Under the pieces are notes generated by a model, which saw only the letters and a program-made list of their open reading frames with translations, was not told the origin of the DNA and ran no database searches. Position numbers and translations under genes: made by a program. DNA of 64,000 nt, taken from the NCBI GenBank assembly GCA_030646715.1, contig JAUSLJ010000033.1, forward strand, positions 124,001-188,000, in the 5' to 3' direction. Source of the stretch: Agitococcus sp. (GTDB lineage: Bacteria; Pseudomonadota; Gammaproteobacteria; Pseudomonadales; Moraxellaceae). The stretch's first letter is position 1. Each line of letters starts with the position of its first letter. Positions 33,682-50,070 of this stretch are shown piece by piece.

Positions 33682-34062
33682 TCAAGCCAACACCAAAACA
33701 CCATCCATTTCTACCTGTGCGCCACGCGGTAACGAAGCAACACCAACCGCCGCACGCGCAGGATAGGGTTGAGTAAAATAGCGCGCCATAATCTCATTCA
33801 CCAACGCAAAATTGGCTAGGTCGATAAGAAAAATATTGATTTTAGCGATGTCTTGTAAGCTGCCGCCCGATGCTTCACACACGGCTTTTAGATTGTCAAA
33901 GACTTGAATAATTTGCGCTTCAATACCGTCTTTCAGTTGCATGGTTTGTGGGTCAAGGGCAATTTGGCCAGATAAATACACGGTATTGCCAACTTTAACC
34001 GCTTGCGAATAAGTACCAATAGCGGCAGGGGCGAGGTCGGTACTGATAATAGAACGTGACAT
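33682..34062 (-). CDS. ridA: Reactive intermediate/imine deaminase RidA
   Basis: A trimeric YjgF/YER057c family enzyme that hydrolyses reactive enamines/imines such as 2-aminoacrylate. Motifs are '[28 protein letters not shown]', '[21 protein letters not shown]' and '[22 protein letters not shown]', with the substrate-binding Arg and the Glu near the end. At 126 residues it is standard. It starts 15 bases after pelG, so it can be reached by pel transcription. In many relatives ridA directly follows spoT; here the whole pel operon lies between them. Confidence 0.95.
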
Positions 34063-34077
34063 AATGAAATTCCTAGA

Positions 34078-35448
34078 CTATTGCAGCATAAAGGTGCGGT
34101 ATTCTAACTCATCAAAGACTTTATCTAAGTATCTAAAACCCAACATAATACAAATCAGTAATGCTGCTGCCAAACCGTAACCATAGAATTTTGGCCCTAA
34201 ATACAGGGTAAGTCCCGTAAATACACCGTTTAAAATGACAAATAATCCCGTTAACACTAAAACAATACGGCGTTTATCTAAATAAAAGAACACATTGAGT
34301 ACGCCCAAAAACACCACTTGCAAGCCAACACTGATTAAATTGACAAACAATAATGGCAAATATAACAAGGAGATATGTAGGGTGTTCAAAATAATTTCGC
34401 CCGCGACAAACACCGTTAACGCGGCAATACTTTGAATTTTAATGATTTGATAAATGCCCTGACGGACAGTAAAGACCATTTCATTACGCATTTCTTCGAT
34501 ATATTCCAGCGAGCCACCATCACGCACGGCATTGTAGAAGTTGTCATAAAATTCAACAAAATCGGTTTCCATTTTCACTAAAAAAACGGCCATACCGGGA
34601 ATAATGGATAAGTAGGCTAAAAACACAGGAATGTCATAAATCAGGGACGCGCGTAAGGGGCCAATAATGGCTTGGCTAGTTGGCTCATAAAACCAAAACA
34701 TAAACTTATCGAGCCATAAACCAAAGTTATAAAAAAAACCGACCCACACTAAACTCCAAAATAAATAACGCTTATCCATAAAATCAAAGGCGATAAAATA
34801 ATCGGAAGGATAGTTGCGTAGAATCAAAATCACCATGCCAATCAATAAGATAAATTGGCCAAGTACAAAGCCGCCTAATAAACCTTCGAGGCCATAAGGC
34901 CGTAATAACAAGGCAAATAAAACCGTTGAGCCATAACCAATGGCAAATAAACTGACTATCGCTTTGTATTGTTTCATGCCTGATAAAAAGATGGTGGCAA
35001 TCCAAATATCACTCATCACCACAAAGCCCGCTAACATCAATAAGCGATACATAATGCTTTGATTGGGAAAGAGAAAAATAATCACCAATGTGCCAAACAG
35101 ACCTGTCAGTAACGTCACCCACATTAGTAAACCATTAAAATTGGGTAAGATGACATTCGCGCGTTTTTCAAATAAACGGTCGGCAGTAAAACGTGTAAAA
35201 GCGAGTTGAGCAAAACCTGTGAGTGTTAAACTAAAGGCAATTAAATAAGTAACACTGACCTGAAATTGAGTAATCAAAAACTCAGGCACGACCATCGACA
35301 CACTCATCAAACCAATGACCAGAATGCCAATAATCGACAATACCCAAGGACCTGAGCTAATAATGCCTGCATAAGCATAGGCTTGCATCATACCTAATAA
35401 GCTATCGCGCTTTAACAGTTTGCGCAGTTCAAAGCCGATACCCGCCAT
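34078..35448 (-). CDS. pelG: Pel polysaccharide inner-membrane transporter PelG
   Basis: A Wzx-like (MOP superfamily) polytopic protein with about 12 hydrophobic segments. The N-terminus 'MAGIGFELRKLLKRDSLLG' is characteristic of PelG. With PelD, PelE and PelF it forms the synthase/transport complex that moves the Pel chain (a GalNAc/GlcNAc-rich cationic polymer in Pseudomonas) across the inner membrane. The length of 456 matches. Its start codon shares one base with the pelF stop (TAATG), giving coupled translation. Confidence 0.95.
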   Translation of the reverse strand: MAGIGFELRKLLKRDSLLGMMQAYAYAGIISSGPWVLSIIGILVIGLMSVSMVVPEFLITQFQVSVTYLIAFSLTLTGFAQLAFTRFTADRLFEKRANVILPNFNGLLMWVTLLTGLFGTLVIIFLFPNQSIMYRLLMLAGFVVMSDIWIATIFLSGMKQYKAIVSLFAIGYGSTVLFALLLRPYGLEGLLGGFVLGQFILLIGMVILILRNYPSDYFIAFDFMDKRYLFWSLVWVGFFYNFGLWLDKFMFWFYEPTSQAIIGPLRASLIYDIPVFLAYLSIIPGMAVFLVKMETDFVEFYDNFYNAVRDGGSLEYIEEMRNEMVFTVRQGIYQIIKIQSIAALTVFVAGEIILNTLHISLLYLPLLFVNLISVGLQVVFLGVLNVFFYLDKRRIVLVLTGLFVILNGVFTGLTLYLGPKFYGYGLAAALLICIMLGFRYLDKVFDELEYRTFMLQ

Positions 35449-37013
35449 TAGTGATTTCCTCGTGGACAGCTTTTGGGTGTTGCCGCTAATGCGTCTGATT
35501 TATTGAGGCATTCCTCATAGACCGAGCGATAACGACCAAACATTTGTTCTTGGGTGTAATACCGTTCAACGCGAGTAATACCTGCGGCTTGTGCGGCGCG
35601 CCAGCGTTCGGGGTTGCTTAATAAGCCAACAATGGCCGTCGCTAATTCGGTGGGGTTGGCAATGCCGACAATTTCACCCGATGCACCGATAGAGCGGTCG
35701 ATAGGCCCTAAACCTTCGACTAATTGCCGACATGAACCGACATCTGTGGAAACACAGGGTACACCAGCGGCATAACCTTCTAAAATCACGAGGGGTAGGG
35801 CTTCGGAAATAGAGCTAAGCACTAACAATCCCACTTTCGGTAATAATTCGTCGATGCGCTGGAAACCTAAAAATTTGACGTTGTCGGTCAGTCCTAGTCC
35901 TTTGACTAAGCTACGGCAGTCGGCGGCATAATCGGGGTCTTCATCTTCTGGCCCTGCAATCCATGCTTCGGCATCAGGTAATTGATTGACGACGGTACGC
36001 ATGGCGCGAATAAAGGTTTTAATGTCTTTAATGGGGACGACACGACCAATCAAACAAATGGTTAACGGAATGGTGTCGCTGCGTTTCTCACGTACTTTGG
36101 CGAGGTGTGGCAAATTAATGCCATTGGGAATGTTTTCGGTACGTTCGGCTGGCGCGCCATCTTTAATCTGTCGTAGGCGATTAGTTTCGTAGAGGGCAAT
36201 AATTCGGTCAGCATGGTGATAACAATCACGCCCCAGTGCCTCAAAAAAGCGAATCCATAAATGGCGAAAATAAGCGACTTCGGAGCTATCTTTGGTCAAT
36301 GTGCCGCGATTGTCACGAATCCATTCTGCTTGGAATAAATCAATTTTTCGTTCTTTGGTATAAATACCGTGCTCTGACAGAATTAACGGTTTACCTGTCC
36401 GTTGTTTCATTAACGCGCCTAAAAAGCCTGCATAGCCTGTAGAAATCGTATGATAGACTTTGACAGGAATAAATGTTTCTGTCAGTGCCATTAATTTCCA
36501 TAACGGCGAGTGCATGATCCGCACTGTCCAAAAATAATCGACAAATGACGGGTCAGTGCAACGCTCCCGATATTGCTCGGTTATATAATCCCATGATTCC
36601 CGACTGTATAAAAAGTCTGCTTCGGCATAACGGCCTTCATTGCGATGTTGCATAATACTCTTGAGTAAAGATGCTGTTTCGCCTTTGGGTGTATCCGCAT
36701 GACGATATTGCTCGTGCAAACAACGAATTTCTTTAAAGACTTGTTTATTACCCTTACGCTTGATGACGGGGACTTTGCCGTGCGGTTCATGTAAATAATG
36801 CACTTCTAAATGCACGACGTTATCAGGTAGTTGATAACGCATCTCGCCATAATCGCTGGCTTGGCTACCAATAAAACACAAGGCAAAGGTGTGTTCAGGA
36901 AAGCCTTTAATCATTTGATTCACCCAACTTGACACACCGCCACTGACGAAGGGATATGTGCCTTCTAACAGCAAGCCAATATCGGCCGATTGCCCTTGTT
37001 TTAGTACGGTCAT
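35448..37013 (-). CDS. pelF: Pel polysaccharide glycosyltransferase PelF
   Basis: A cytosolic GT-B (GT4) glycosyltransferase that polymerises Pel from UDP-sugars. The N-terminus 'DIGLLLEGTYPFVSGGVSSWVNQMI' is typical. The donor-binding region has 'ICLIGRVVPIKDIKTFIRAM' and the retaining-GT E-x7-E motif 'EALPLVILEGYAAG'. At 521 residues it is close to the Pseudomonas protein. It overlaps pelE and pelG by one base each. Confidence 0.96.
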   Translation of the reverse strand: MTVLKQGQSADIGLLLEGTYPFVSGGVSSWVNQMIKGFPEHTFALCFIGSQASDYGEMRYQLPDNVVHLEVHYLHEPHGKVPVIKRKGNKQVFKEIRCLHEQYRHADTPKGETASLLKSIMQHRNEGRYAEADFLYSRESWDYITEQYRERCTDPSFVDYFWTVRIMHSPLWKLMALTETFIPVKVYHTISTGYAGFLGALMKQRTGKPLILSEHGIYTKERKIDLFQAEWIRDNRGTLTKDSSEVAYFRHLWIRFFEALGRDCYHHADRIIALYETNRLRQIKDGAPAERTENIPNGINLPHLAKVREKRSDTIPLTICLIGRVVPIKDIKTFIRAMRTVVNQLPDAEAWIAGPEDEDPDYAADCRSLVKGLGLTDNVKFLGFQRIDELLPKVGLLVLSSISEALPLVILEGYAAGVPCVSTDVGSCRQLVEGLGPIDRSIGASGEIVGIANPTELATAIVGLLSNPERWRAAQAAGITRVERYYTQEQMFGRYRSVYEECLNKSDALAATPKSCPRGNH

Positions 37014-38011
37014 TAGCGTCCCCAGTAGTCAGCGGCCATACTTAATGGCCGTGAACGACCATCTTCACGTAAGCCAGTCATTAAGCGGCGAGTGGTGGCG
37101 TAGTCGCCGCGTAAATAGGCTAATTCCGCTAAATAAGGTTCAGCGCGTACCAGTGGAAAACCTTGTTTGATGGCGGTAGTAAAACCACCCATTGCTCGAA
37201 TATAGTCACCGCGCAACGTCCACATACGGCCAGAAATTGCCCATAGGCCTGCATCTTTGACTTTGTGTTTTAGGGCTTCATTAGCGTAGCGTTGCACTTG
37301 TTCGAGGGAAAATTGGCGCATATCACCTTGCACTAAGTTTTGATAGACCAGCTCCCAATACAGCTCGGCTAATTCCCGTGCAGGAACATAACGTTCTTCG
37401 GCGGTGGGTAAGCTTTCATAACGCTGTAATGCATCTTGAATACGATGCGTCAGTTGTTTTTCGCGGCTGTCTAACATGCCATAGGCTAATAAACGTAAGT
37501 CGTCTGAACTGTCGCTTAGCGTGTCTCGCAGAATACTTGCCGAGTGACGCGCAGGCATATTTTGTAAGGCTAATAAAGCTTTCATACGCATATCAATAGG
37601 CGTTTCTTTATTGCTTAACTGTTGCCGTACCCGACCAGAGCGCCATCCTGCTTCAATATTATTTTTTGGCATTTCGTATTGTGGGGTAACGATAGCGGTA
37701 AAACGGTTGGTTTTATCAAAGTAGGGTAGCCATGCGGCCACTAAAGAACCAATGGCAAAACCAAATAAGCCAATAAAAGGGATGAAAAAGCTCAGACTAA
37801 ATAATAACAACATCACCCATAATCGCGGTTGTTTATAGGATGTAGGTAAGACTGCCCATGCTACGGGGGTAATGGCGGCACTGGCCATTGCGTGTAAAGT
37901 AAAATACTGAAACAGCACGGCGGTGCTGTGGCTCGACAATAACAATAACGCCATTGCCGCGAGTTCTAAGCTAACGGCGAGCATTCCCAGTTTGGCATTG
38001 GGATTAAGCAT
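37013..38011 (-). CDS. pelE: Pel biosynthesis membrane protein PelE
   Basis: The N-terminal ~110 residues contain several hydrophobic helices. The remainder is a soluble helical/TPR-like region ('RMKALLALQNMPARHSASIL', 'ALKHKVKDAGLWAISGRMWT'), the architecture of PelE, which bridges PelD/PelG and PelF at the inner membrane. Sequence conservation in this family is low, so the call also uses position (pelD-pelE-pelF order) and length (332). Confidence 0.9.
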   Translation of the reverse strand: MLNPNAKLGMLAVSLELAAMALLLLSSHSTAVLFQYFTLHAMASAAITPVAWAVLPTSYKQPRLWVMLLLFSLSFFIPFIGLFGFAIGSLVAAWLPYFDKTNRFTAIVTPQYEMPKNNIEAGWRSGRVRQQLSNKETPIDMRMKALLALQNMPARHSASILRDTLSDSSDDLRLLAYGMLDSREKQLTHRIQDALQRYESLPTAEERYVPARELAELYWELVYQNLVQGDMRQFSLEQVQRYANEALKHKVKDAGLWAISGRMWTLRGDYIRAMGGFTTAIKQGFPLVRAEPYLAELAYLRGDYATTRRLMTGLREDGRSRPLSMAADYWGR

Positions 38012-38023
38012 GATGCATCTCCA

Positions 38024-39379
38024 TTAGGCTTGTCGCACTAAGCAGCGTTCTAAGAGATTTGTCAGTAATTCCTCGGCAGGACGTTCATTGACCAATGCAG
38101 TATAGGGCGTGACTTTGGCATCTATAAACTTACTGGCATTGAACATTTCTTTCAGCCAGCGTTGGGTGCGCAGCAAATAACCCGTGACGGCGGCATCACC
38201 ATGAAGCGGCATAATGGTGATTAAAATGTCGCGGTCGGATAAGCGAATATCCCAACTAATATCGAGTTGGCGGCGTTGGCGAATGGCTTCGGCAAAAATA
38301 TCGCGCCGTGCAGGGCTATCGGAAATCACTAAAGCGGTAATACTGGAAGGCAAGCCACTTTCACGGTGAATACGTTCTAAACGTAATAGTTCCGAGGCAA
38401 ACTCTAGCGGACAGCCAACGTTATCACGCAAAATTTTCATCGCTAACGGAATGAGTTTGACGTTGTCGGCGTAATAACCTAGTAAAACACTCAAGAACTG
38501 CAATGTTTCCAAATTCAACGATAAAAACGGCATACGCTCGACGACTAATAAGCCAAAACATTGTTGATTAGTCGCGATGAGTGGCGCTACGACTAAATAA
38601 CGGCTTTCGACATCTTGAACCGCTTCGCTTTGCAAATGGCACAGTTCATTACGTTCGAGGGCATAAGTGATTAACGGGTCTTTGACAACTAAAGGCTGGC
38701 TTGAGCCTAAGGTCGCACTCGCTTGCGTGGCGACAACACCGTTATGAACGGCATATAAACTAGCGACTTCTAGCTGACAGTTTTGGCCTAATAGACTTAT
38801 CAGGGCATTGGCATTCGGAAGTGCATCCGGGTCTGTATTGCCTGTGACCATGATTTCGCGGATTTTCATAATCGAGTCGCGCAAAGTCATCGGTTTGGTA
38901 AGCATATCTTGCTCTAAACGCTCATGCGAGAGCTTGAGTAGATAGTGGCGACGCGTTAGTGACTCTAAGCGTTCGTTTAAATAGGAGTTCGCTTCACGCA
39001 CACGTTTTAGGCGAATAATCCAGACATCGGCAAACTCACCCGCAATCAAACTGAGAATTAAACCACCCATAAAAAAATGCGCGGGAAACGCTTCTTGATT
39101 AAAGCCAAGTAAGTCCCAAGCCGACCATGCGAACGAAATTAAACCAATAGAAGCAAAAGCGGACAGCGTCCCATAGCGTAAACCTAACACCGTCGGTGCT
39201 AACCATAACCACGGAAACGGCAGTTTCACCATAAACGGATCGGAAGGATTAGACCATGCGCCCAGTCCGATGACCGCACAAGAAAACAGCACGACTTCAA
39301 ACATCGCTAGTCGAGTTGCTTGTTTAGGTGCAAGCACAGCCGCAATTTGGCGGCGGGTGATGGGCAACAGCATAGTCAA
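38024..39379 (-). CDS. pelD: c-di-GMP receptor PelD
   Basis: The inner-membrane regulator that activates Pel synthesis on binding c-di-GMP. Four N-terminal hydrophobic helices (about 25-130) are followed by a short coil, a GAF domain (about 170-315) and a degenerate GGDEF domain that has no GGDEF motif. The inhibitory-site-like RxxD is visible as 'RQLD' in 'RRQLDISW', with a further Arg 34 residues on in 'GYLLR', matching the spacing of the R-x-x-D and distal Arg described for Pseudomonas PelD. This suggests that c-di-GMP control is intact. The length of 451 is normal. Confidence 0.95.
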   Translation of the reverse strand: MTMLLPITRRQIAAVLAPKQATRLAMFEVVLFSCAVIGLGAWSNPSDPFMVKLPFPWLWLAPTVLGLRYGTLSAFASIGLISFAWSAWDLLGFNQEAFPAHFFMGGLILSLIAGEFADVWIIRLKRVREANSYLNERLESLTRRHYLLKLSHERLEQDMLTKPMTLRDSIMKIREIMVTGNTDPDALPNANALISLLGQNCQLEVASLYAVHNGVVATQASATLGSSQPLVVKDPLITYALERNELCHLQSEAVQDVESRYLVVAPLIATNQQCFGLLVVERMPFLSLNLETLQFLSVLLGYYADNVKLIPLAMKILRDNVGCPLEFASELLRLERIHRESGLPSSITALVISDSPARRDIFAEAIRQRRQLDISWDIRLSDRDILITIMPLHGDAAVTGYLLRTQRWLKEMFNASKFIDAKVTPYTALVNERPAEELLTNLLERCLVRQA

Positions 39380-39403
39380 CGCTTCCTAAATATGAATAAG
39401 ACT

Positions 39404-39937
39404 TTAGTGAGGCAAGGCTGATTTTAATAAACTATCGACGGTTTTTTGCGCGACGGCACTGACGGCTTCTCGGCTCCAACCTGTACGGGCGGCACTGCCA
39501 CTCCACACCACTTGTCCTGATGTTAAGTCGATGACATTTAAGCTAATACCTGTGGCAGGCTCACCATCTAAACCGACTTTATAACGCCATTCATCGACAC
39601 TACCTGCGACGGCATATTTTGCGCCTGTGGTTTTTGCCCATGTTAACGCGGCTTCTTGGTTGCGACGGTCGGCTAATTCAAATAAGCCTTCGTTGGTGGC
39701 GGTGGCGTTATAAACACTGAGGTTGCTGACACCATTAACGCGCAATAAATTGGCGGTGATACTGTCTAAACGTGCGCCAGCTTGTGGCGTTTCAGTGTTG
39801 TTAATGGCAGGTAATAATACCCATTGCGCGCTTTTATCAATACCGACACTTTTGGTGGCATTGAGTGTTGAGCAACCATTTAAGGCCGTTAATCCCATCA
39901 TGATAGTGATGATTGGAAGATGCTTTTTGATGTTCAT
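39404..39937 (-). CDS. pelC: Pel outer-membrane lipoprotein PelC
   Basis: A lipoprotein with a clear lipobox 'ALNGC' (Cys22) and a small alpha/beta domain ('WVLLPAINNTETPQAGARLDSI', 'GAKYAVAGSVDEWRYKVGLDGEPA', 'LTSGQVVWSGSAARTGWSREAV'). PelC forms a dodecameric ring at the inner face of the outer membrane that guides the cationic polymer to the PelB pore. The length of 177 is standard. Confidence 0.93.
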   Translation of the reverse strand: MNIKKHLPIITIMMGLTALNGCSTLNATKSVGIDKSAQWVLLPAINNTETPQAGARLDSITANLLRVNGVSNLSVYNATATNEGLFELADRRNQEAALTWAKTTGAKYAVAGSVDEWRYKVGLDGEPATGISLNVIDLTSGQVVWSGSAARTGWSREAVSAVAQKTVDSLLKSALPH

Positions 39938-39948
39938 GCTGTGTTCCT

Positions 39949-42771
39949 CTAATAAAACAAACGATAACTAAGATGTAGTTGTTGGCTGACATCGCCGTTT
40001 TGTTGCGCGCCTTGACTACGAACAAGGTAGACACTTAAACGGTCGCCACCGATCACCGAGCCATGTATGCCCAATTGACCATTGATACCTGTGCCATTGC
40101 TATCCGACTGACTGACACCCACTTCGCCAAAAACGCGCCATGCCCGTTGGTATTGACGTTCGTCCACTTGACCAAATGCCCAAGCCAAAGCAATTTGTTG
40201 ATAGTCTTTAGGGATGAAAAAAGCTGTTGTTGCTGTTTGGCCGATTGGCACAAGACTCATCAGCGCAGGGTCGAGGCTATTATTGGCAGTAAACTGACCG
40301 ATGCTGATATTCATTTTCAGCACATGGTCGGGTTGCTCGGTAAATAAGCGATGACCCGCGTCAATAGTCAAAATTGTGCCGTCCCCTAAAGCCTGTCCAT
40401 TTTGACTAAGGTAATTATCCATCGCTAATTCGGCATTGACATATTCACGGCCTGTCGGTGTCCAGTTGATACTGGCGGCGAGACGATTTTTCATCCCAGC
40501 GACCAATAAGCCTGTACTGTCGGTGCTTTCTTGATGTTGCGACCACAACCAATTGGCCGCTAATTGGCTATCAAACTTATAATGTTGTGCGACACGCCAG
40601 CCTGTATAGGCCGCTAGGCTGTCGGCTTTATGGATGGCGATAGTCCAGTCACTTTGTTCAAGGTGATGAGTAAAACTAATATTCAGGGCATCGCTTTGTT
40701 TTGGTGGAATGCCCAATACCGTGACATCTTTCGTTTTTTGCGTGTTCTGTTGCAGGTCTAAGGCCATGCGCAAATGTTCAGTTAACGGTGTCGTCCATGT
40801 TAATTGCCGTTGTTGCCGCGATAATGCCCCCAACTTACCTGAGCTGAACGAGACATCAAACCAATGACCGCGTTCGCTCAATAAATTACTGTAGCGACGA
40901 TGTAGTTCATCATCGAAAGGGTAATCTTCTTGTGTGTCAAAAGCTAAGTTTTCGGCCAAACTGAAACGATTGACGCGAGTAGCCGCTTCAATACGGTCAT
41001 AAATCGGCAATTCCGCCACTTGCGTATTGAGCAGTTGATTTATGGTTTGTTGGTCTTGTGCTTGTAAGGCCAAATTTAAGGTTGCCCACGTCGGTGCAGC
41101 CAGTTGCCGTTGATGCTGATGCAACCACTGACGGCTAGTATCGTAAAACTCATGGTTGAGTAACCAGCCCAGTGTTAATGCTTGGCTAAAACTATCGGGT
41201 CGTTGCGCTGCTTGGCTGTTGAGGTGTTGCTGCAAGCGTTGTTGACTGGCATCACTGCCCATGTTGTCGAGCGATAACGATAAAAACAAATGTTCTAGCT
41301 CGGTTAAACGGTCGCCTGATTCGCTACTTTTAATAGCTGTTTGTTGCTGATATAGGTTGGCGCGGATGTTATTGGCTGGGTCAACTGCGCCTAAATTTTG
41401 CAGCGAATCGGCAAAGCTAAAAGCGGCTAAGGCATCATTGGGGTGATACCGCAAATAGGCATTTTGAAAGGGTAGGGCGCGTAAGGGTTGTTGCAAATAA
41501 AGCCAAGCTGAACCCCACGTTGGCCATAAAGCAGGCGTGCGTTTTGCCGTTGAGTCGGCCGAGAATAATAGTGTTTTTAATTCTGTATTTTTATGCGCTT
41601 CGCTCAATACTCCCACTAAACCTTGTAATAAACGACTTAGTTTTGGCGCAAGTAATAAGGCTTTCTCATAATCGGCTTGCGCGGCGACAAGGTTCTTTTG
41701 TGCCCAAAATAATTGCGCGCGTTGTTCTAAAAATAAGGCGTTTTTTTCCAGTTTTGCCAGTTCTTTGTCGGTTAAGCTGGCTAAAAACTGGGTTGCGCCA
41801 TCAAGATGGTGGGCTTTTTGATAGAGAAATAGTACGCCAATCGCGGCGTTATCTTGACTGTATAAACGGAATGACAGCTCATTCAAAAACGCCGCATTTA
41901 ATGGGTCGGAGTCGATTTGTAGTGTGCTGTAATTCATCAAGTCCGCATCACTAAACAAAAACTCATCGGTGAGATGTTGATAAGCACGTTCGGCGGTATC
42001 TTTTTTATCAATCAAGCGCGACAGTTCGGCGTAGGTACGCCAATAGTCACCCCGATTGGTCGGCATTTTCTTTTCGACTTCGGTCAGACTTTGCCATGCT
42101 TGAACAATATCACCACGTTGATAAAACAATGCCGCCCGCCTTAATAACCAACTTTCTTCGACGGGGGGATAGTGTTGAATTAAACGATTAAGGGCGGTAA
42201 TCGCTCGTTCGTCTTTGCCTGCGCGTTCGGCTAAACCTGCTTCGGCAACGAGCATTGTCTTTTTGGCATTGCTTTTGTTGAGTTGTGCCAAAAAAGCCAA
42301 ACCCTCATCAGGGCGGCCTAAACGCTCGTAAATTTGCACCAGTTTTAAAATTGCCGCTTCGTTGTTGGGGTTAAGTGCCAACAATCGACGTTGATATTGC
42401 AATAAAGCTTCATCATCTAAGAGGCTTTCGGCTAAACGGCCAACGGCATCCCATGCTTTATTGTCATTAGTATTTTTGGCAAGTTTGAGCCATGCGCCAA
42501 GTGCTTCGCTCGGCTTACCAACCCATTCCGATATTTGAGCATATCGCTCCAGCCAAAATAAGCTAGTCGGTTCTGCGGTGATGGCTTTATCAGCCACTTG
42601 CCATGCCGCCGCTAAGTTTTTGTTGGCTAAATAAACGTCATAACCAAGCCGATAACGAATATCGTCAAAACTGGCTTGAGGTGTGCCTGCGGCCGCTTGA
42701 ATATCCATTTCTTCGCCATAAGCAATAGAAATAGATAACGATAATAAGGCTAGATAATGCCGCCACTTCAT
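39949..42771 (-). CDS. pelB: PelB, C-terminal protein: TPR scaffold plus outer-membrane porin
   Basis: A 940-residue protein with its own Sec signal peptide ('MKWRHYLALLSLSISIAYG', cleavage AYG/E likely), then a long series of TPR-like helical repeats (about 30-640) and a C-terminal ~300 residues of alternating strands ending 'HLSYRLFY', as for a beta barrel. This equals the bulk of PelB, the Pel export pore. In Pseudomonas, PelB is one ~1190-residue chain. Here the membrane-anchored start is a separate gene, and this part starts with ATGA overlap and a strong AGGAG 7 bases upstream, so the split looks genuine and not a sequencing slip. Confidence 0.88.
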   Translation of the reverse strand: MKWRHYLALLSLSISIAYGEEMDIQAAAGTPQASFDDIRYRLGYDVYLANKNLAAAWQVADKAITAEPTSLFWLERYAQISEWVGKPSEALGAWLKLAKNTNDNKAWDAVGRLAESLLDDEALLQYQRRLLALNPNNEAAILKLVQIYERLGRPDEGLAFLAQLNKSNAKKTMLVAEAGLAERAGKDERAITALNRLIQHYPPVEESWLLRRAALFYQRGDIVQAWQSLTEVEKKMPTNRGDYWRTYAELSRLIDKKDTAERAYQHLTDEFLFSDADLMNYSTLQIDSDPLNAAFLNELSFRLYSQDNAAIGVLFLYQKAHHLDGATQFLASLTDKELAKLEKNALFLEQRAQLFWAQKNLVAAQADYEKALLLAPKLSRLLQGLVGVLSEAHKNTELKTLLFSADSTAKRTPALWPTWGSAWLYLQQPLRALPFQNAYLRYHPNDALAAFSFADSLQNLGAVDPANNIRANLYQQQTAIKSSESGDRLTELEHLFLSLSLDNMGSDASQQRLQQHLNSQAAQRPDSFSQALTLGWLLNHEFYDTSRQWLHQHQRQLAAPTWATLNLALQAQDQQTINQLLNTQVAELPIYDRIEAATRVNRFSLAENLAFDTQEDYPFDDELHRRYSNLLSERGHWFDVSFSSGKLGALSRQQRQLTWTTPLTEHLRMALDLQQNTQKTKDVTVLGIPPKQSDALNISFTHHLEQSDWTIAIHKADSLAAYTGWRVAQHYKFDSQLAANWLWSQHQESTDSTGLLVAGMKNRLAASINWTPTGREYVNAELAMDNYLSQNGQALGDGTILTIDAGHRLFTEQPDHVLKMNISIGQFTANNSLDPALMSLVPIGQTATTAFFIPKDYQQIALAWAFGQVDERQYQRAWRVFGEVGVSQSDSNGTGINGQLGIHGSVIGGDRLSVYLVRSQGAQQNGDVSQQLHLSYRLFY

Positions 42772-43679
42772 GGACTCACTCCTGTCGCGGGGGTGCTAAT
42801 GCGCTGTTGTAATAACAACGACACATAATGTTGAGCGAGGTCAGGACGATTCGCCGATAACGCCAAACGCGCCAAAAACTCTAAAATGCTTGGGTCTTGC
42901 AACAAAACACCTGCGTAAGTCTGCGCGGCAGTCATGGCATCAGGCCATAAATTACCTGACTGTAGAGCTTTAACGCCTGATAGAAAGTAACTGCGCCGTT
43001 GTTGGAGGCTGCTACTGTACGGCATCGCTTGAAAATAGGTACGTGCCGCCGAGCGATAATGGCCTTCCGCTAAATACAATTGAGCAATACGATCAAACCA
43101 GACTAAATTGACATCTTTGGCGTTATAAATCAGTTGGTAATACAGTTCGCGGGCTAACACGGTATCACCAAAGGCATAAGCGTTTTTGGCAAATACTTCC
43201 AGCCGAGTTGTAGGCCATTCAAAATGACTGACTTTGCGTAATTGCTTTAAGTAGTGACGTTGGGCATTGATAAACTCCGCTGATTTTGGCGTAAATTGCC
43301 ACAATTGCCGTTCAAGAATATCCAGCAATAACACTTCTGCTTTCGCTTGCAGCTTCATTTCTAAGGTTTTGATTTTGAAGATCGGCGCAAGGGTTTGCCG
43401 TGCTTCACGAATTTGGCCTTTATCAAAAAAACGCTGTGCCAGTAAGATGCGTAAATAGTGGTCATCGGGCTTGGCGCGTAACCATGCTAATAAATAGGCA
43501 ATACTGACGTTGTCAGTTTGAGCCGAACGTTCTAAATGCCGCTGTAAACTTTGCTCAGGATAAATCACCATAAAAATCAGTGAGGTCAGAAGGCCGAAAC
43601 CTAAAATTTGTCCTGTCGTCGCAAAGCGTAATCGTTCAGGGGCGGCAGGAAAGCCTGAGCGCGGTAAGCTCATGGGCAT
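42768..43679 (-). CDS. PelB, N-terminal protein: inner-membrane-anchored TPR segment
   Basis: A 303-residue protein with one membrane helix near the start ('TGQILGFGLLTSLIFMVIYP') and helical TPR-like repeats after it ('HYLRILLAQRFFDKGQIREARQTL', 'RIAQLYLAEGHYRSAARTYFQAM'). It corresponds to the N-terminal part of single-chain PelB, and its size plus that of the next gene (303 + 940) is close to full-length PelB. It overlaps pelA by 44 bases; Met3 is an alternative start with better spacing to GGAGG. Together the two products may bridge the inner membrane and the export pore. Confidence 0.8.
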   Translation of the reverse strand: MPMSLPRSGFPAAPERLRFATTGQILGFGLLTSLIFMVIYPEQSLQRHLERSAQTDNVSIAYLLAWLRAKPDDHYLRILLAQRFFDKGQIREARQTLAPIFKIKTLEMKLQAKAEVLLLDILERQLWQFTPKSAEFINAQRHYLKQLRKVSHFEWPTTRLEVFAKNAYAFGDTVLARELYYQLIYNAKDVNLVWFDRIAQLYLAEGHYRSAARTYFQAMPYSSSLQQRRSYFLSGVKALQSGNLWPDAMTAAQTYAGVLLQDPSILEFLARLALSANRPDLAQHYVSLLLQQRISTPATGVSP

Positions 43680-46395
43680 TGACCTCCAACAGTAAACGAG
43701 AGCCTTGGCGAGTAGTCGCTAGGGTTTTAGAGCCTTGTATTAATTGACATTTGCTGGCATTGGCAAAGGTAATGCTAATCGGTTGATAGCCCGTTAACGA
43801 CAGATCTAGCGTGTTTTTGCTACGCGTAAAACGGTTAATACGAGCATTGGTCGATTCAACATAAGGTAGAGTGTTGTTGGCCGATTGCGTCACTAAGTTG
43901 GCATTGCTGTTTAATAAATGGACATAATTTTGCCCGTTATAACGATTAAATCCTGCCACTTGCGGGCTATCAGCAAAATTAATATGGTTCTTTTCATCCG
44001 TCCAACGCACTGTTTTTAAGTCGCCATTACCCCGAAAACGATAACCTTCAGGCGTACGGGCTATGACAAAATCATTAAAATCTAACACTTTTTTAATATA
44101 TTCAGAGCTATAAATGGGGAAAACGGGTTGTTTTAATGCCCATTGATAAACTTTATGCAGTGAATTTAACGAAGCCGTTTTGGAAACAATATAAGAATGA
44201 TAATAAATATCTATTGGTTTAAAACGGTAAGGTTTGTCGGTGAGTTCATACGTCTCAATAACACGTTCAAAACCATAAAAAGGGCCTATCCAATTGTTCG
44301 TATAAACGTTTTCATTTTGATTGGGGGCAAAAACCTGAAAATTGCCACCTTTAGGAATACCCAAGCCTGCAATTCGTGTCCAAGAATTTTGACTGCGGGT
44401 GATGGTGGTATCGCCGCCGTTCATATTGAGTACACCTGCATTTACCGTTTCGGCGATGGCGTTAGGCGTAGCGACACAATTACCTGTCCATAATAAAGCT
44501 TTTACTTTTTTATCTTTAGGCGCGAGTCGCTTATTAATGTAATCAATTGAACCTTGAATTTCCCGCTCTGCTGAATATTGATAGCCTTTTAGTGGCAAAT
44601 GGTAGCCTTCACTGTTGTCGGCATTTTCGGCTTTCACCCACGAAAAAGGATGCGAATACGAGTGACTGGCAATTTCTACCCACGGTAAAGCAAAGCTTTG
44701 CTGGTACAGTTTTTCTAAGGCGGCTGATTTATCAGGATACAAACCGTCAGGACTGACTTCGCCTTCAATAGCCGATAAAGTCGTCGGGATTTGATAGCGT
44801 TTTAATACTTCGTTAAGCATCACTTCGCCATTAAAGGGATATTTGGCGCGTTCAGCCAAACTCATAAAACCATCACCATCAATATGCACCATCAACAAAC
44901 GACGACCATTTTCGGTGGTGACATCGGCAATCGGGCGGTGTAGGTCTAATTTTAATGCGCGTTGTAAAAAGGCGAGGGGATTAATATGCCAACGTGCACC
45001 CGCATTATCATGGGGTAATTCTTCAATGGTATAAGGTGCTAACACATAGCCGCCCCATGAAGTAATAGCGGCAGGATGAAACTCTTGCCCTTGTTGATTG
45101 GCGAGGGTTAATAACGGCTGACTGTTGGCATCGGCACGAATAGGGTAAAGATGGCTTTGCCGCGCACGGACAGGAATTTCAAAGCCCATCATCGGGTCTT
45201 GGTTTTTTACCGTCAACACATCAGCGGCGGTTAATTCTTGGTAATTCAGCCCTAATATGGGCAATAAACCACTATCAGCATTCACGCCAAAACGGCTAAA
45301 AATGGCAATCGGCATTCCTGCGTTTATTTGCTGTTCTAGCCAACGCGGATAGTCACTGTTACTGGCGATCGAGTCATCGTTGATCCAACTGATAATACCT
45401 GCATAACGCCCTGTTAACGGTTGTGTCGGTAATTTGCTGTTGAACGGCAAATATTCAATACTCAAACCTAAATAAGCCAATGGCGCGCTTAAAAATCGTT
45501 GACCATCAGCATAATGTAAGTCTGCGCTTTCGGCAGGGTTATAAATAATCAACACTTTACGCGGTAACACCTCAATGTCGCCGACACCTAACATATCTAA
45601 ATTGGGTGTGCTGATCCACGGGATATAACCATCAGCACGAATTTTTGCTGCCGTTTCACGCGCCAGCGGTCGATCTTTTGCGGCGACATAATCAATCATT
45701 AACACAGGTAGGTGATATTGTTGCTTGACGATTTCGGCTTGTTTTTTAATCCACGTTTGATCATTGGCGGATACGGGCTTAAATTTTTGCTGTTGAGCAT
45801 CCCAACCTTGATATAACGACTCAATTGCCACCATCCATGCTAAGTCATGTAGTTCAGGCAATACTTCAAAACCCCGATTAAAAATCAGTTTTGCTTCAGG
45901 CCAGCGTTTTTTCAGTTCACGAATGGTGTTTTTTAAGCCCGCTTCTTGACGCTGACGTTGTTCAGGAGTTTTGGCAAATAGTTGATAAGAATCTAAGGTG
46001 TCTAAAAAGAAGCCGCGATAGCCTTTTGCCCATAACGGGGCAATGACATGATCAGCAAAAAAACTTGGCCATTCGGGGGCGGATTGGTCAATGACACGGC
46101 TTGCCCATGCTTGATTGTTGCCTTTTAGCCATGCTTTAGGAATAGCGGCAAAATAGGGTTTACTCGGATGAACTTCGCCAACGCTGGCGTAAGCAAATAA
46201 CTCGTGGTCTTTAGTATTGTAATTTTCAGGAGTGATGCTAGCAGCATCGGGATCAACTACAGCGACATCATATGCGCGTAACTCGGCCAAAGGCGGATTG
46301 ACACCATAAAATAAGGCGACATTCATTTGTTGCTCAGCAAAAGCACTGAAGCAATAAAGGCAGAGCAGGGGGAGCAACAAAAAACGAATGATCAA
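43636..46395 (-). CDS. pelA: Pel deacetylase/glycoside hydrolase PelA
   Basis: A periplasmic enzyme with two activities on Pel. After a signal peptide (to about residue 20) comes a GH114-type hydrolase domain (about 25-275; candidate acid Glu192 in 'AIESLYQGWD'), then a linker/reductase-like region and a polysaccharide deacetylase domain with 'HIDGDG' (Asp508) and HxxxH 'HSYSH' (His578/His582). A beta-rich C-terminal domain follows. The length of 919 matches Pseudomonas PelA. The only start downstream of an in-frame stop is TTG (46395), with AGGA 10 bases upstream, so initiation may be weak. It is the first gene of the pel operon. Confidence 0.93.
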   Translation of the reverse strand: MIIRFLLLPLLCLYCFSAFAEQQMNVALFYGVNPPLAELRAYDVAVVDPDAASITPENYNTKDHELFAYASVGEVHPSKPYFAAIPKAWLKGNNQAWASRVIDQSAPEWPSFFADHVIAPLWAKGYRGFFLDTLDSYQLFAKTPEQRQRQEAGLKNTIRELKKRWPEAKLIFNRGFEVLPELHDLAWMVAIESLYQGWDAQQQKFKPVSANDQTWIKKQAEIVKQQYHLPVLMIDYVAAKDRPLARETAAKIRADGYIPWISTPNLDMLGVGDIEVLPRKVLIIYNPAESADLHYADGQRFLSAPLAYLGLSIEYLPFNSKLPTQPLTGRYAGIISWINDDSIASNSDYPRWLEQQINAGMPIAIFSRFGVNADSGLLPILGLNYQELTAADVLTVKNQDPMMGFEIPVRARQSHLYPIRADANSQPLLTLANQQGQEFHPAAITSWGGYVLAPYTIEELPHDNAGARWHINPLAFLQRALKLDLHRPIADVTTENGRRLLMVHIDGDGFMSLAERAKYPFNGEVMLNEVLKRYQIPTTLSAIEGEVSPDGLYPDKSAALEKLYQQSFALPWVEIASHSYSHPFSWVKAENADNSEGYHLPLKGYQYSAEREIQGSIDYINKRLAPKDKKVKALLWTGNCVATPNAIAETVNAGVLNMNGGDTTITRSQNSWTRIAGLGIPKGGNFQVFAPNQNENVYTNNWIGPFYGFERVIETYELTDKPYRFKPIDIYYHSYIVSKTASLNSLHKVYQWALKQPVFPIYSSEYIKKVLDFNDFVIARTPEGYRFRGNGDLKTVRWTDEKNHINFADSPQVAGFNRYNGQNYVHLLNSNANLVTQSANNTLPYVESTNARINRFTRSKNTLDLSLTGYQPISITFANASKCQLIQGSKTLATTRQGSRLLLEVNAHELTALRLSCRP

Positions 46396-46479
46396 AGTGC
46401 CAATTTCCTATATCGCTAAAATCACGCTTGATAACAGCAGGGTTAACCACCATTTTGAGAGCGTCATATCTAGTCAAAG

Positions 46480-46495
46480 TGTGATCAAGTTAACA
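46480..46495 (-). promoter_or_regulatory. Candidate CRP/Vfr-type site upstream of pelA
   Basis: TGTGA-N6-TAACA (TGTGATCAAGTTAACA) matches the CRP consensus TGTGA-N6-TCACA at 9 of 10 conserved positions. It is centred about 92 bases upstream of the pelA start in the 270-base gap between spoT and pelA. The gap holds no convincing gene, and I found no strong -35/-10 pair in it. Confidence 0.35.
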
Positions 46496-46665
46496 CTTTC
46501 TGGTGACTGTGCCATTGGCCGATGTTTTCAATGTTCCGAAAATAAAGTCAATTGTGTTGCAAAGTGTAATGGATTCGTCATAGATTTGTGAGGGGGTTCA
46601 CGGAATTATTGTTTCTATTACGATAGGAGGTGTTTTTTCGGCGATGAGAAAGTGGATGAGATGTT

Positions 46666-48795
46666 TTATAAGCTTTTAACTGTCCGTCCTAAGCCTGTAC
46701 GGGTGACTTTTTCGACACCCGACAAAATGCGAATACGCTTAATAATTTGCGCTAAATGAATACGGTTTTTCACGGTTAAATTCATACTAATGACAGCGTG
46801 TTGCGCGCCTTTTTCTTGCATATTAATACTTTCTATATTGGCATCGCTGGCGGCAACCGATTGTGCAACTTCCGCAAGCATCCCGCGTTGATTGGCTAAC
46901 TCAATGCGTAATTCGCTTTGAAACTCTCGGTTAATGTCTTTTGCCCATTGTAAGGGCATACATTTATCGGGCGTGTCCCGCAACTCCATCACCACATTTC
47001 TGCACGCATCACGATGAATTACCACGCCCCGTCCCGCACTCAAATGACCAATGATGCTGTCACCCGGTAAAGGACGGCAACAACGGGCATAGGACACTAC
47101 TAAACCTTCAGTCCCTGTAATTGCCAAATGGCGGGCGTTGGGGCGAGAGTGTTCTTTAATATCTTCAGGCAATAAACGACGAGCCACTAACTGCGGCGCA
47201 CGATTGCCTAAACCGATATCTGCCAATAATTCATCTAAAGAATCAAAATTTAATTCGGCTAACGCGTATTGCAGTACCATTGCGTCAATGTCATGTAAAC
47301 GGGTGCCGTAAGCCGATAACGACTTATCTAATAAACGGCGGCCTAATTCCACCGACTCCGATAATTGTTGTTCTTTCAAGAAGTTGCGAATATTGGTACG
47401 CGCTTTACTGGTAATGACAAAGTTCAGCCAATGCGGGTTCGGTGACGCACCTGGAGCAGTGACAATTTCCACGGTTTGCCCCGTATTTAACGGCAAACTT
47501 AAGGCTGCTAAACGTGAGTCCACTTTTGCTGCAATACAACTATTACCGACATCGGAATGAATGGCATAGGCAAAATCAACGGGAGTCGCGCCTTTAGGCA
47601 AGGTAAAAATACGGCCTTTAGGAGTAAAAACATAAACTTCATCAGGGAATAAATCAATTTTAACGTTTTCGATAAAATCTAAAGAGTTACCCGCATTTTT
47701 TTGCAGTTCTAGTAGCGACGACATCCATTCCCGCGCCCGTGCTTGGGAGGTGTGATTAAAGCCATCTTTATACAACCAATGGGCGGCAATGCCGTTATTG
47801 GCCATCGCTTCCATCGCTTCGGTGCGGATTTGTACCTCAATCGGCACACCACGTTGACCTTTTAATAAGCTATGTAAAGACTGATAACCATTGGCTTTGG
47901 GGATAGCGATGTAATCTTTAAACTTTCCCGGAATGGGCTTATATAAATTGTGTACCACACCTAAAGTGCGATAACAGGTATCCACCGAATCGACAATAAC
48001 GCGAAAACCATACACATCCATGATTTCATCAAAAGACTTTTGTTTGTCTTTCATCTTTTGATAAATACTGAGCAGATGTTTTTCGCGGCCAATGACCTTG
48101 GCTTTAATACCACTGTCTTGCAGGCGTTTTTCTAAAGCTTGACGAATATTGGTTACGCCTTCTTTACGATTACCATGCGCGACTTTCACGGCTTTTTGAA
48201 TTAACGGGGCGCGCATCGGGAATAACGCAAAAAAACACAAATCTTCTAATTCTACCCGTACTTCATTCATCCCCAAGCGATTGGCGAGTGGTGCATAAAT
48301 ATCAAGGGTTTCTTGGGCGATGCGTTTGCGTTTTTCGGGTTTGAGGACATCCAACGTACGCATATTGTGCAAGCGATCAGCGAGTTTGACGATAATGACA
48401 CGAATGTCTTTGGTCATCGCTAACATCATTTTGCGTAGATTTTCGGCTTGTGCTTCGGCTTTAGAAATATGGCCGACTTTTTCTAATTTGGTGACACCAT
48501 CGACTAATTCGGCGACTTCGGCACTAAACAGTTGGGCGAGTTCGGCTTTACTGACCCCTGTATCTTCAATGACATCATGAAGCATGGCGGCCATCAAACT
48601 TTGATGGTCCATGTGCATGGCACTGAGGATTTCGGCGACTGCTAACGGGTGGGTAATATAAGGTGTGCCATCGCGGCGCATTTGTTGGCCATGAGCGCGT
48701 TCGGCAAAGGTATATGCGTCACGAACTAAGGCTATTTGTGCAGGTGCCAAATAACTACTGAGATGTTGACAGAGGACTTCAAGTCCAGCACTCAT
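46666..48795 (-). CDS. spoT: Bifunctional (p)ppGpp synthase/hydrolase SpoT
   Basis: Makes and degrades the stringent-response alarmone. Domains in order: an HD hydrolase with intact 'MLHDVIEDTG' and 'LADRLHNMRTL'; a RelA/SpoT synthetase ('GFRVIVDSVDTCYRTLGVVH', 'KDYIAIPKANGYQSLH'); TGS ('VYVFTPKGRIFTLPKGATPV'); a conserved Cys region ('YARCCRPLPGD'); and a C-terminal ACT domain. The ORF track starts at a GTG (48831); I use the ATG at 48795, which gives 709 residues and the usual N-terminus. It follows rpoZ and would precede ridA in the ancestral order, but pel intervenes. Confidence 0.96.
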   Translation of the reverse strand: MSAGLEVLCQHLSSYLAPAQIALVRDAYTFAERAHGQQMRRDGTPYITHPLAVAEILSAMHMDHQSLMAAMLHDVIEDTGVSKAELAQLFSAEVAELVDGVTKLEKVGHISKAEAQAENLRKMMLAMTKDIRVIIVKLADRLHNMRTLDVLKPEKRKRIAQETLDIYAPLANRLGMNEVRVELEDLCFFALFPMRAPLIQKAVKVAHGNRKEGVTNIRQALEKRLQDSGIKAKVIGREKHLLSIYQKMKDKQKSFDEIMDVYGFRVIVDSVDTCYRTLGVVHNLYKPIPGKFKDYIAIPKANGYQSLHSLLKGQRGVPIEVQIRTEAMEAMANNGIAAHWLYKDGFNHTSQARAREWMSSLLELQKNAGNSLDFIENVKIDLFPDEVYVFTPKGRIFTLPKGATPVDFAYAIHSDVGNSCIAAKVDSRLAALSLPLNTGQTVEIVTAPGASPNPHWLNFVITSKARTNIRNFLKEQQLSESVELGRRLLDKSLSAYGTRLHDIDAMVLQYALAELNFDSLDELLADIGLGNRAPQLVARRLLPEDIKEHSRPNARHLAITGTEGLVVSYARCCRPLPGDSIIGHLSAGRGVVIHRDACRNVVMELRDTPDKCMPLQWAKDINREFQSELRIELANQRGMLAEVAQSVAASDANIESINMQEKGAQHAVISMNLTVKNRIHLAQIIKRIRILSGVEKVTRTGLGRTVKSL

Positions 48796-48889
48796 ACGGC
48801 ACTCTAATAAATAAAAAATAGGGGATGACACAGATAAACAGCGACCGCCTGAGCAGCGAGCTACTGTTTATATATATCATCCCTTGTCA

Positions 48890-49150
48890 TTAGAAGCTAG
48901 GTTGTTCTAACGCCAACATCATGTCTTCTTCGTCATGATCTTCTTCAACTTTTTGCGTCAACAAATGACGGTCAATATGGCCTGCGGCGATTTCACGCAA
49001 AGCCATCACCGTTGGTTTATCATTTTCCCACGGTAAGAACGGTTCTTTATTGCCAGTGGACAGTTGGCGAGCGCGTTTTGCGGCAACCAATACTAATTCG
49101 AAGCGGTTTTCGACCGCGCCTAAACAATCTTCAACGGTAACACGAGCCAT
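48890..49150 (-). CDS. rpoZ: RNA polymerase subunit omega
   Basis: A small subunit that helps assemble beta-prime and binds ppGpp together with it. The start '[10 protein letters not shown]', '[18 protein letters not shown]' and '[11 protein letters not shown]' are definitive. The ORF track is longer; the ATG at 49150 with AGAGGT just upstream is the real start (86 residues). Its place between gmk and spoT is the standard gammaproteobacterial arrangement. Confidence 0.97.
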
Positions 49151-49203
49151 ACTGACCTCTAAATACTGAAAACTAACAAGCAACCTTTGATTGTAGGGAA
49201 AGA

Positions 49204-50070
<867 letters not shown>

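What the first reader, a model, noticed from the sequence alone, without database searches (positions are those of the whole stretch)
39949..43679. PelB export protein encoded as two coupled genes
In Pseudomonas, PelB is one ~1190-residue chain with an N-terminal membrane helix, TPR repeats and a C-terminal outer-membrane barrel. Here the membrane helix plus the first TPRs form a 303-aa protein, and the remaining TPRs plus barrel form a 940-aa protein with its own signal peptide. The junction is an ATGA overlap with a strong AGGAG 7 bases before the second ATG, so it is designed for two products. This separates the inner-membrane anchor from the pore and implies a non-covalent bridge.
Basis: partly seen in the sequence, partly recalled or inferred. 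Interest (0 to 1): 0.72.

Follow-up and report, generated by a model that had tools for sequence, protein, structure and literature searches.

The report
PelB exporter split into separate genes
In this Moraxellaceae bacterium the long PelB protein that carries the biofilm sugar Pel through the cell envelope is made as two separate proteins, an inner-membrane anchor piece and an outer-membrane pore piece, and the same cut at the same place recurs in many relatives (as three pieces in acid-loving Acidithiobacillus), so the bridge between the two membranes need not be one continuous chain.

Summary
pelB1 (303 aa: uncleaved membrane helix + TPRs) and pelB2 (940 aa: signal peptide + TPRs + 16-strand barrel) overlap by ATGA, with AGGAG 7 bases upstream. 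It is not a frameshift: the same junction recurs in a same-genus genome, across Moraxellaceae and Alcanivoracaceae, and in six further gammaproteobacterial families; in all 45 junctions read, the downstream protein starts with a signal peptide (43 by rule, 2 by eye). The cut falls between whole TPRs, near residue 286 of P. aeruginosa PelB, and nothing is lost. P. aeruginosa-type chains have 2-4 residues there; betaproteobacterial chains carry a 7-350-residue linker. Two Moraxellaceae genomes with a single chain nest inside split ones: a re-fusion. In Acidithiobacillaceae PelB is normally three genes; in A. thiooxidans of that family a pelD mutant loses most carbohydrate. Best reading: an inner-membrane module and an outer-membrane export module that dock non-covalently; docking is inferred, not shown. 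Prior art found: one figure legend noting 'pelB fission' in other species. The organism is Moraxellaceae, not Thiotrichales. New variant of a known kind.

The parts
43636..46395 (-). pelA (919 aa; GH domain N-terminal), overlaps pelB1 by 44 nt
   Evidence: PF03537; 30-46% identity to PelA of relatives
42768..43679 (-). pelB1: inner-membrane-anchored TPR protein, 303 aa = P. aeruginosa PelB about 7-292
   Evidence: (AF2 pLDDT 90.5)
43563..43616 (-). membrane helix of PelB1 (residues 22-39), followed by YPEQ, no AxA cleavage site
42795..43556 (-). TPR region of PelB1 (residues 42-295), ends after a complete TPR
42779..42783 (-). Shine-Dalgarno AGGAG for pelB2, 7-base spacer
42768..42771 (-). ATGA: stop of pelB1 and start of pelB2 overlap by 4 nt
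   Evidence: conserved in same-genus G673
39949..42771 (-). pelB2: secreted TPR + outer-membrane barrel, 940 aa = P. aeruginosa PelB from about 287 to near its end (aligned 299-1187)
42715..42771 (-). signal peptide of PelB2 (MKWRHYLALLSLSISIAYG|EE, likely cut near residue 19)
   Evidence: rule-based; no SignalP available
40873..42663 (-). TPR/alpha-helical scaffold of PelB2 (residues 37-633), begins with a complete TPR; holds the stretch homologous to the PelA-binding TPRs 9-14 of P. aeruginosa
39955..40863 (-). 16-strand PelB beta barrel (residues 637-939)
   Evidence: PF24604; best PDB match 9h80_M, TM 0.81 by target
39404..39937 (-). pelC (lipoprotein, 177 aa)
38024..39379 (-). pelD (451 aa, PelD_GGDEF)
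   Evidence: PF16963
37013..38011 (-). pelE (332 aa)
   Evidence: 26-42% identity to PelE of relatives
35448..37013 (-). pelF (521 aa)
   Evidence: NF038011, E 2e-244
34078..35448 (-). pelG (456 aa)
   Evidence: PF16933

Best explanation
This is a genuine bipartite PelB inside a complete pel operon. PelB1 stays in the inner membrane through an uncleaved N-terminal helix and presents TPR1-6 to the periplasm, next to the PelDEFG synthase. PelB2 is exported with its own cleavable signal peptide and carries TPR7-19 (with the stretch homologous to the PelA-binding TPRs) and the barrel that PelC surrounds. Translational coupling through the ATGA overlap keeps the two in step. The two TPR stacks most likely dock end to end, so the inner-to-outer-membrane Pel conduit of one-chain PelB is rebuilt without a covalent link. 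SHOWN here: two ORFs, conserved junction, domain content, same cut site in many lineages, re-fusion in one lineage, three-gene version in Acidithiobacillaceae. INFERRED: signal peptide cleavage, physical docking of PelB1 on PelB2, passage of Pel along the composite scaffold, and function (no Pel assay exists for this organism).
For: Anatomy. PelB1 and PelB2 tile P. aeruginosa PelB with nothing lost (7-292 and 299-1187), and both AF2 models end/start at whole TPRs. Conservation: same site in Moraxellaceae, Alcanivoracaceae and six further families. Of 45 junctions, 37 overlap by 4 nt, 3 by 1 nt and 4 by 8 nt; 43 pass a signal-peptide rule and the other two look like signal peptides by eye. Selection: pelB1 pN 0.175 vs pS 0.72 within the genus. 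Fused-homologue logic: single-chain PelB of G036/G674 nests inside split Moraxellaceae in the operon tree (100/100) and, for G036, in both half-trees (99*/100*), i.e. a re-fusion. Function of split systems: f217 = Acidithiobacillaceae has three-gene PelB, and A. thiooxidans delta-pelD has sixfold less carbohydrate (PMC5852609).
Against: No direct evidence of PelB1-PelB2 contact: no multimer prediction was possible and no co-purification exists. The membrane-bridging role is itself only proposed for one-chain PelB (PMC12141448; PMC12022489). Long betaproteobacterial linkers at the same point suggest the two TPR blocks need not stack tightly.
Confidence: 0.7

Rival explanations
1. PelB1 is an independent inner-membrane factor: its TPRs serve the synthase (PelDEFG) or PelA and receive the polymer, and it never forms a continuous scaffold with PelB2. 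One-chain PelB is then simply two functional units held together.
For: PelB1 holds only TPR1-6, outside the PelA-binding TPRs 9-14 (PMC12022489). Betaproteobacterial single chains carry a 7-350-residue linker at the same point, so the two TPR blocks need not stack tightly. AF2 gives each part as a self-contained fold.
Against: P. aeruginosa-type chains have only 2-4 residues at the junction, i.e. continuous stacking; the re-fused G036 chain also has only about 3 residues there.
Confidence: 0.2
2. Neutral fission: the inner-membrane tether has become dispensable and pelB1 is a relic that remains by operon inertia.
For: Fission occurs at a permissive inter-repeat point; PelB1 is less conserved than PelF or PelA.
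Against: pelB1 is under purifying selection within the genus, keeps its membrane helix in the split loci read, and keeps gene order and overlap across families.
Confidence: 0.07
3. Sequencing or assembly frameshift, or a recent pseudogene.
For: Two family members have one continuous pelB.
Against: Same junction in an independent genome of the genus and in more than 25 other loci; pelB2 has its own SD, start and signal peptide, which no indel creates.
Confidence: 0.01

Closest known systems
PelB of Pseudomonas aeruginosa (one chain, 1193 aa; PDB 9h80, 5wft; PMC12141448, PMC12022489)
   Same: Inner-membrane helix, TPR scaffold, PF24604 16-strand barrel, flanked by PelA and PelC; PelB1 and PelB2 tile nearly its whole length.
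   Different: Here cut between TPR6 and TPR7 into two proteins, the second with a cleavable signal peptide.
'pelB fission' reported in PMC7112194 (Fig. 5(iii), 'aquatic thermophilic species')
   Same: pelB occurring as more than one gene is already noted in a figure legend of a systematic operon survey.
   Different: The text held gives no cut site, domain content, signal peptides or mechanism, and concerns other species with locus gain and rearrangement; the canonical gene order is kept here.
BcsC / PgaA exporters
   Same: PelB2 alone has their layout: cleavable signal peptide, TPRs, C-terminal barrel (layout from general knowledge). BcsC structures are among the fold matches (9b8h, 9b8a).
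   Different: Barrel is PF24604 and no other barrel family was found in Pfam; a separate inner-membrane TPR protein is encoded next to it.
AlgK + AlgE (alginate; separate TPR protein and porin)
   Same: Precedent (general knowledge; AlgX-AlgK-AlgE named in PMC12022489) for TPR scaffold and porin as separate proteins; the three-gene PelB of Acidithiobacillaceae resembles it.
   Different: AlgK is an outer-membrane lipoprotein (general knowledge); PelB1 is anchored in the inner membrane, and PelB2 keeps TPRs and barrel together.

Membership tests
PelB | C-terminal PF24604 barrel, 16 strands | tested here: met
   (E 5.5e-61), 16 strands in AF2 model, best PDB match 9h80_M
PelB | Long TPR scaffold homologous to P. 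aeruginosa PelB | tested here: met
PelB | Uncleaved N-terminal inner-membrane helix | tested here: met
   On PelB1, residues 22-39; non-cleavage and topology are read from sequence only
PelB | One polypeptide from inner-membrane helix to barrel | tested here: not met
   Two overlapping genes, conserved
PelB | Encoded between pelA and pelC in a pel operon | tested here: met
PelB | Binds PelA through TPR9-14 and PelC through the barrel, exports Pel | not testable with these tools
   Homologous stretch present in PelB2; binding and export not tested
BcsC/PgaA | Signal peptide + TPR + family-specific barrel | tested here: not met
   Signal peptide and TPR present, but the barrel is PF24604; no BcsC or PgaA barrel family in the Pfam scan

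The most novel reading that the evidence does not exclude
PelB is by nature a modular trans-envelope scaffold that evolution repeatedly cuts and rejoins at the same inter-TPR point (and, in Acidithiobacillaceae, cuts at a second point before the pore). One-, two- and three-chain forms all build a working inner-to-outer-membrane Pel conduit by non-covalent end-to-end TPR docking.
Probability: 0.5. Interest if true: 0.65.

Novelty: new variant of a known kind. Interest (0 to 1): 0.5.

Why it matters
PelB is thought to span the periplasm because one chain carries both an inner-membrane helix and an outer-membrane barrel. Natural two- and three-gene versions show that chain continuity is not required and mark exactly where the scaffold can be opened. 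They give ready-made constructs to test whether the bridge is real, what TPR1-6 do, and how PelB1, PelA and PelB2 assemble. They also mean that pelB1 genes are likely to be annotated only as generic TPR proteins and missed in pel surveys. In Acidithiobacillus caldus the published pelA/pelB/pelC tags (A5904_RS00180/00195/00200, PMC7237784) leave room for two unnamed genes between pelA and the gene called pelB, as a three-gene PelB predicts.

Tried and rejected
(1) Frameshift or assembly error: rejected by a same-genus genome and many relatives. (2) One common split clade: rejected on the PelA+D+E+F tree (p-AU 0.0035), but the PelB2-region tree makes betaproteobacteria a sister clade of the Alcanivorax+Moraxellaceae splits. 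So 'one early fission then fusion in betaproteobacteria' and 'two fissions at the same site' are about equally parsimonious; left open. (3) That betaproteobacterial linkers are decayed signal peptides from re-fusion: suggestive in a few Nitrosomonadales/Bordetella linkers (e.g. ...WFISSAHA|AG), not significant against shuffled linkers overall. (4) L136 third piece and L178 pieces were not counted as three-gene PelB (no signal peptide on the third piece / run of N). (5) Cupriavidus basilensis OR16 (638+857) set aside as a probable frameshift: second piece lacks a signal peptide. (6) DNA alignment of the second cut in L138 vs L149 to see how a linker becomes a signal peptide: too diverged to read. 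(7) Foldseek with PelB1: only generic TPR superhelices. (8) Marmont 2017 papers (PMC5358405, PMC5702679), which might show operon layouts, are not held.

Full report
WHAT IS THERE. On the minus strand, a complete pel operon runs from pelA (46395-43636) through pelB1 (43679-42768), pelB2 (42771-39949), pelC, pelD, pelE and pelF to pelG (ends 34078). PelB1 (303 aa) has a basic N-terminus, a hydrophobic helix at 22-39 without a signal-peptidase site, and TPR helices to residue 295 (AF2 pLDDT 90.5). PelB2 (940 aa) starts with a classical signal peptide, then helices 37-633 and sixteen beta strands 637-939 (AF2 pLDDT 88.1). PF24604, the PelB barrel, matches 638-939, and the best solved match is the P. 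aeruginosa PelBC structure 9h80 (TM 0.81 by target).

WHERE THE CUT FALLS. A PelB1 profile maps to P. aeruginosa PelB 7-292 and a PelB2 profile to 299-1187. With single sequences it is 47-277 and 299-1163. Counting on to the helix ends in the models, the cut is near residue 286, between whole TPRs. By the numbering in PMC12022489 (TPR1-19 at 69-726) it lies between TPR6 and TPR7 (my arithmetic). That paper places the PelA-binding TPRs at 9-14/15 and residues 1-36 as an inner-membrane helix. So PelB2 keeps the PelA-binding stretch and the barrel that PelC surrounds, while PelB1 keeps the inner-membrane helix and the TPRs nearest the synthase.

NOT AN ERROR. An independent genome of the same genus (G673) shows the same SD, ATGA overlap and signal peptide. 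pelB1 there differs at 72% of synonymous but 17.5% of nonsynonymous sites, i.e. purifying selection. The same two-gene layout occurs in other Moraxellaceae, in Alcanivoracaceae (many named Alcanivorax and Alloalcanivorax genomes) and in unnamed families f161, f164, f194, f197 and f212. In 45 junctions (two- and three-gene loci together) the downstream gene overlaps by 4 nt in 37, by 1 nt in 3 and by 8 nt in 4 (the remaining one has an alternative start that gives 4 nt). 43 pass a simple signal-peptide rule, and the two others look like signal peptides by eye. Some named loci and unnamed G genomes are the same organism, so these are junctions read, not independent species.

HOW IT EVOLVED. In 71 single-chain PelBs aligned with 16 split ones, chains of the Pseudomonas type have 2-4 residues at the junction. 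The betaproteobacterial single chains carry an inserted linker of 7-145 residues (350 in one) exactly there. Split ones have 29-102 residues, counting the PelB1 tail, the signal peptide and what follows. On a tree of PelA+PelD+PelE+PelF from 58 loci, split forms fall in two clades (one of seven loci from six families; one of Alcanivoracaceae plus Moraxellaceae, 96/97) and need three changes. Two Moraxellaceae genomes with one-chain PelB (G036, G674) nest inside split ones with full support; a tree that keeps them out of the split clade is rejected (p-AU 1.8e-41). Trees of the PelB1 region and the PelB2 region also put the G036 chain there (99*, 100*), so this is a re-fusion and not a replaced gene. 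Whether the betaproteobacterial single chain is another re-fusion or the ancestral state is not decided: the operon tree and the PelB2 tree differ on the point, and the signal-peptide-scar idea failed a shuffle test overall.

THREE PIECES. In family f217, eleven loci were read with PelB complete in three genes: PelB1 about 282-313 aa, a secreted TPR protein of roughly 550 aa, and a secreted barrel protein of roughly 470-560 aa, mostly overlapping by 4-8 nt. One locus (L219) has two pieces. f217 is Acidithiobacillaceae: a rusticyanin from one of its genomes is identical over 155/155 residues to solved rusticyanin (1cur), half of its rusticyanin-bearing genomes lack pelB, and an epimerase follows pelG, as described for the A. 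thiooxidans and A. caldus pel operons (PMC5852609). That 1cur is the Acidithiobacillus ferrooxidans protein is general knowledge. In A. caldus, the published tags pelA RS00180, pelB RS00195 and pelC RS00200 (PMC7237784) leave two genes between pelA and 'pelB', as expected for three pieces (steps of 5 are the usual RefSeq convention, from memory).

MECHANISM. Most likely PelB1 and PelB2 dock through their end TPRs and rebuild the trans-envelope scaffold proposed for one-chain PelB (PMC12141448). The grounds are the tiling of one-chain PelB, the cut between whole repeats, purifying selection, conserved coupling, and natural re-fusion (fused homologues are a classic sign of partners). What is missing is any measurement of contact. 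The main rival is that PelB1 is a separate synthase-side unit and the scaffold is not continuous; the long betaproteobacterial linkers speak for some looseness at this point.

NOVELTY. [quoted passage not shown] Among the papers found, none describes the cut site, the signal peptides, the breadth, the re-fusion or the three-gene form (searches; supplements could not be read). Two 2017 papers that may show operon layouts are not held. Hence 'new variant of a known kind', with interest about 0.5.

Noticed in passing
L138/L224, L210, L211, L213, L215-L218, L220-L222: Three-gene PelB (inner-membrane TPR protein / secreted TPR protein / secreted barrel) is the rule in Acidithiobacillaceae; L219 has two pieces.
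   Followed up: yes
L038-L115, betaproteobacterial single-chain pelB genes: They carry an inserted linker of 7-145 residues (350 in L095) at exactly the point where other lineages split PelB; P. aeruginosa-type chains have 2-4 residues there.
   Followed up: yes
L032 and L181 (G036, G674): One-chain PelB nested inside split Moraxellaceae: a clean re-fusion without a visible signal-peptide remnant.
   Followed up: yes
L175:3386-4501 (minus) and L177:361-1581 (plus): Stand-alone PelB-type barrel genes (PF24604, 371 and 406 aa) in two genomes of the window's genus that have no PelF over the cut-off and no pel genes seen beside them; function unknown.
   Followed up: partly
window 33682-49929: The pel operon sits between a gmk / short ORF / spoT block and a ridA-like gene; that block is often contiguous with ridA in relatives (from memory), so pel may be an insertion there.
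   Followed up: no
L065:2424-6940 (Cupriavidus basilensis OR16): pelB in two frames (638+857 aa) without a signal peptide on the second: probably a frameshift, unlike the true splits.
   Followed up: partly
L074 and L064, pelB linkers: Linker sequences such as WFISSAHA|AG and WLFSSAHA|QA look like signal-peptide cleavage regions inside a single chain; possible re-fusion scar or internal cleavage site, not significant overall.
   Followed up: partly
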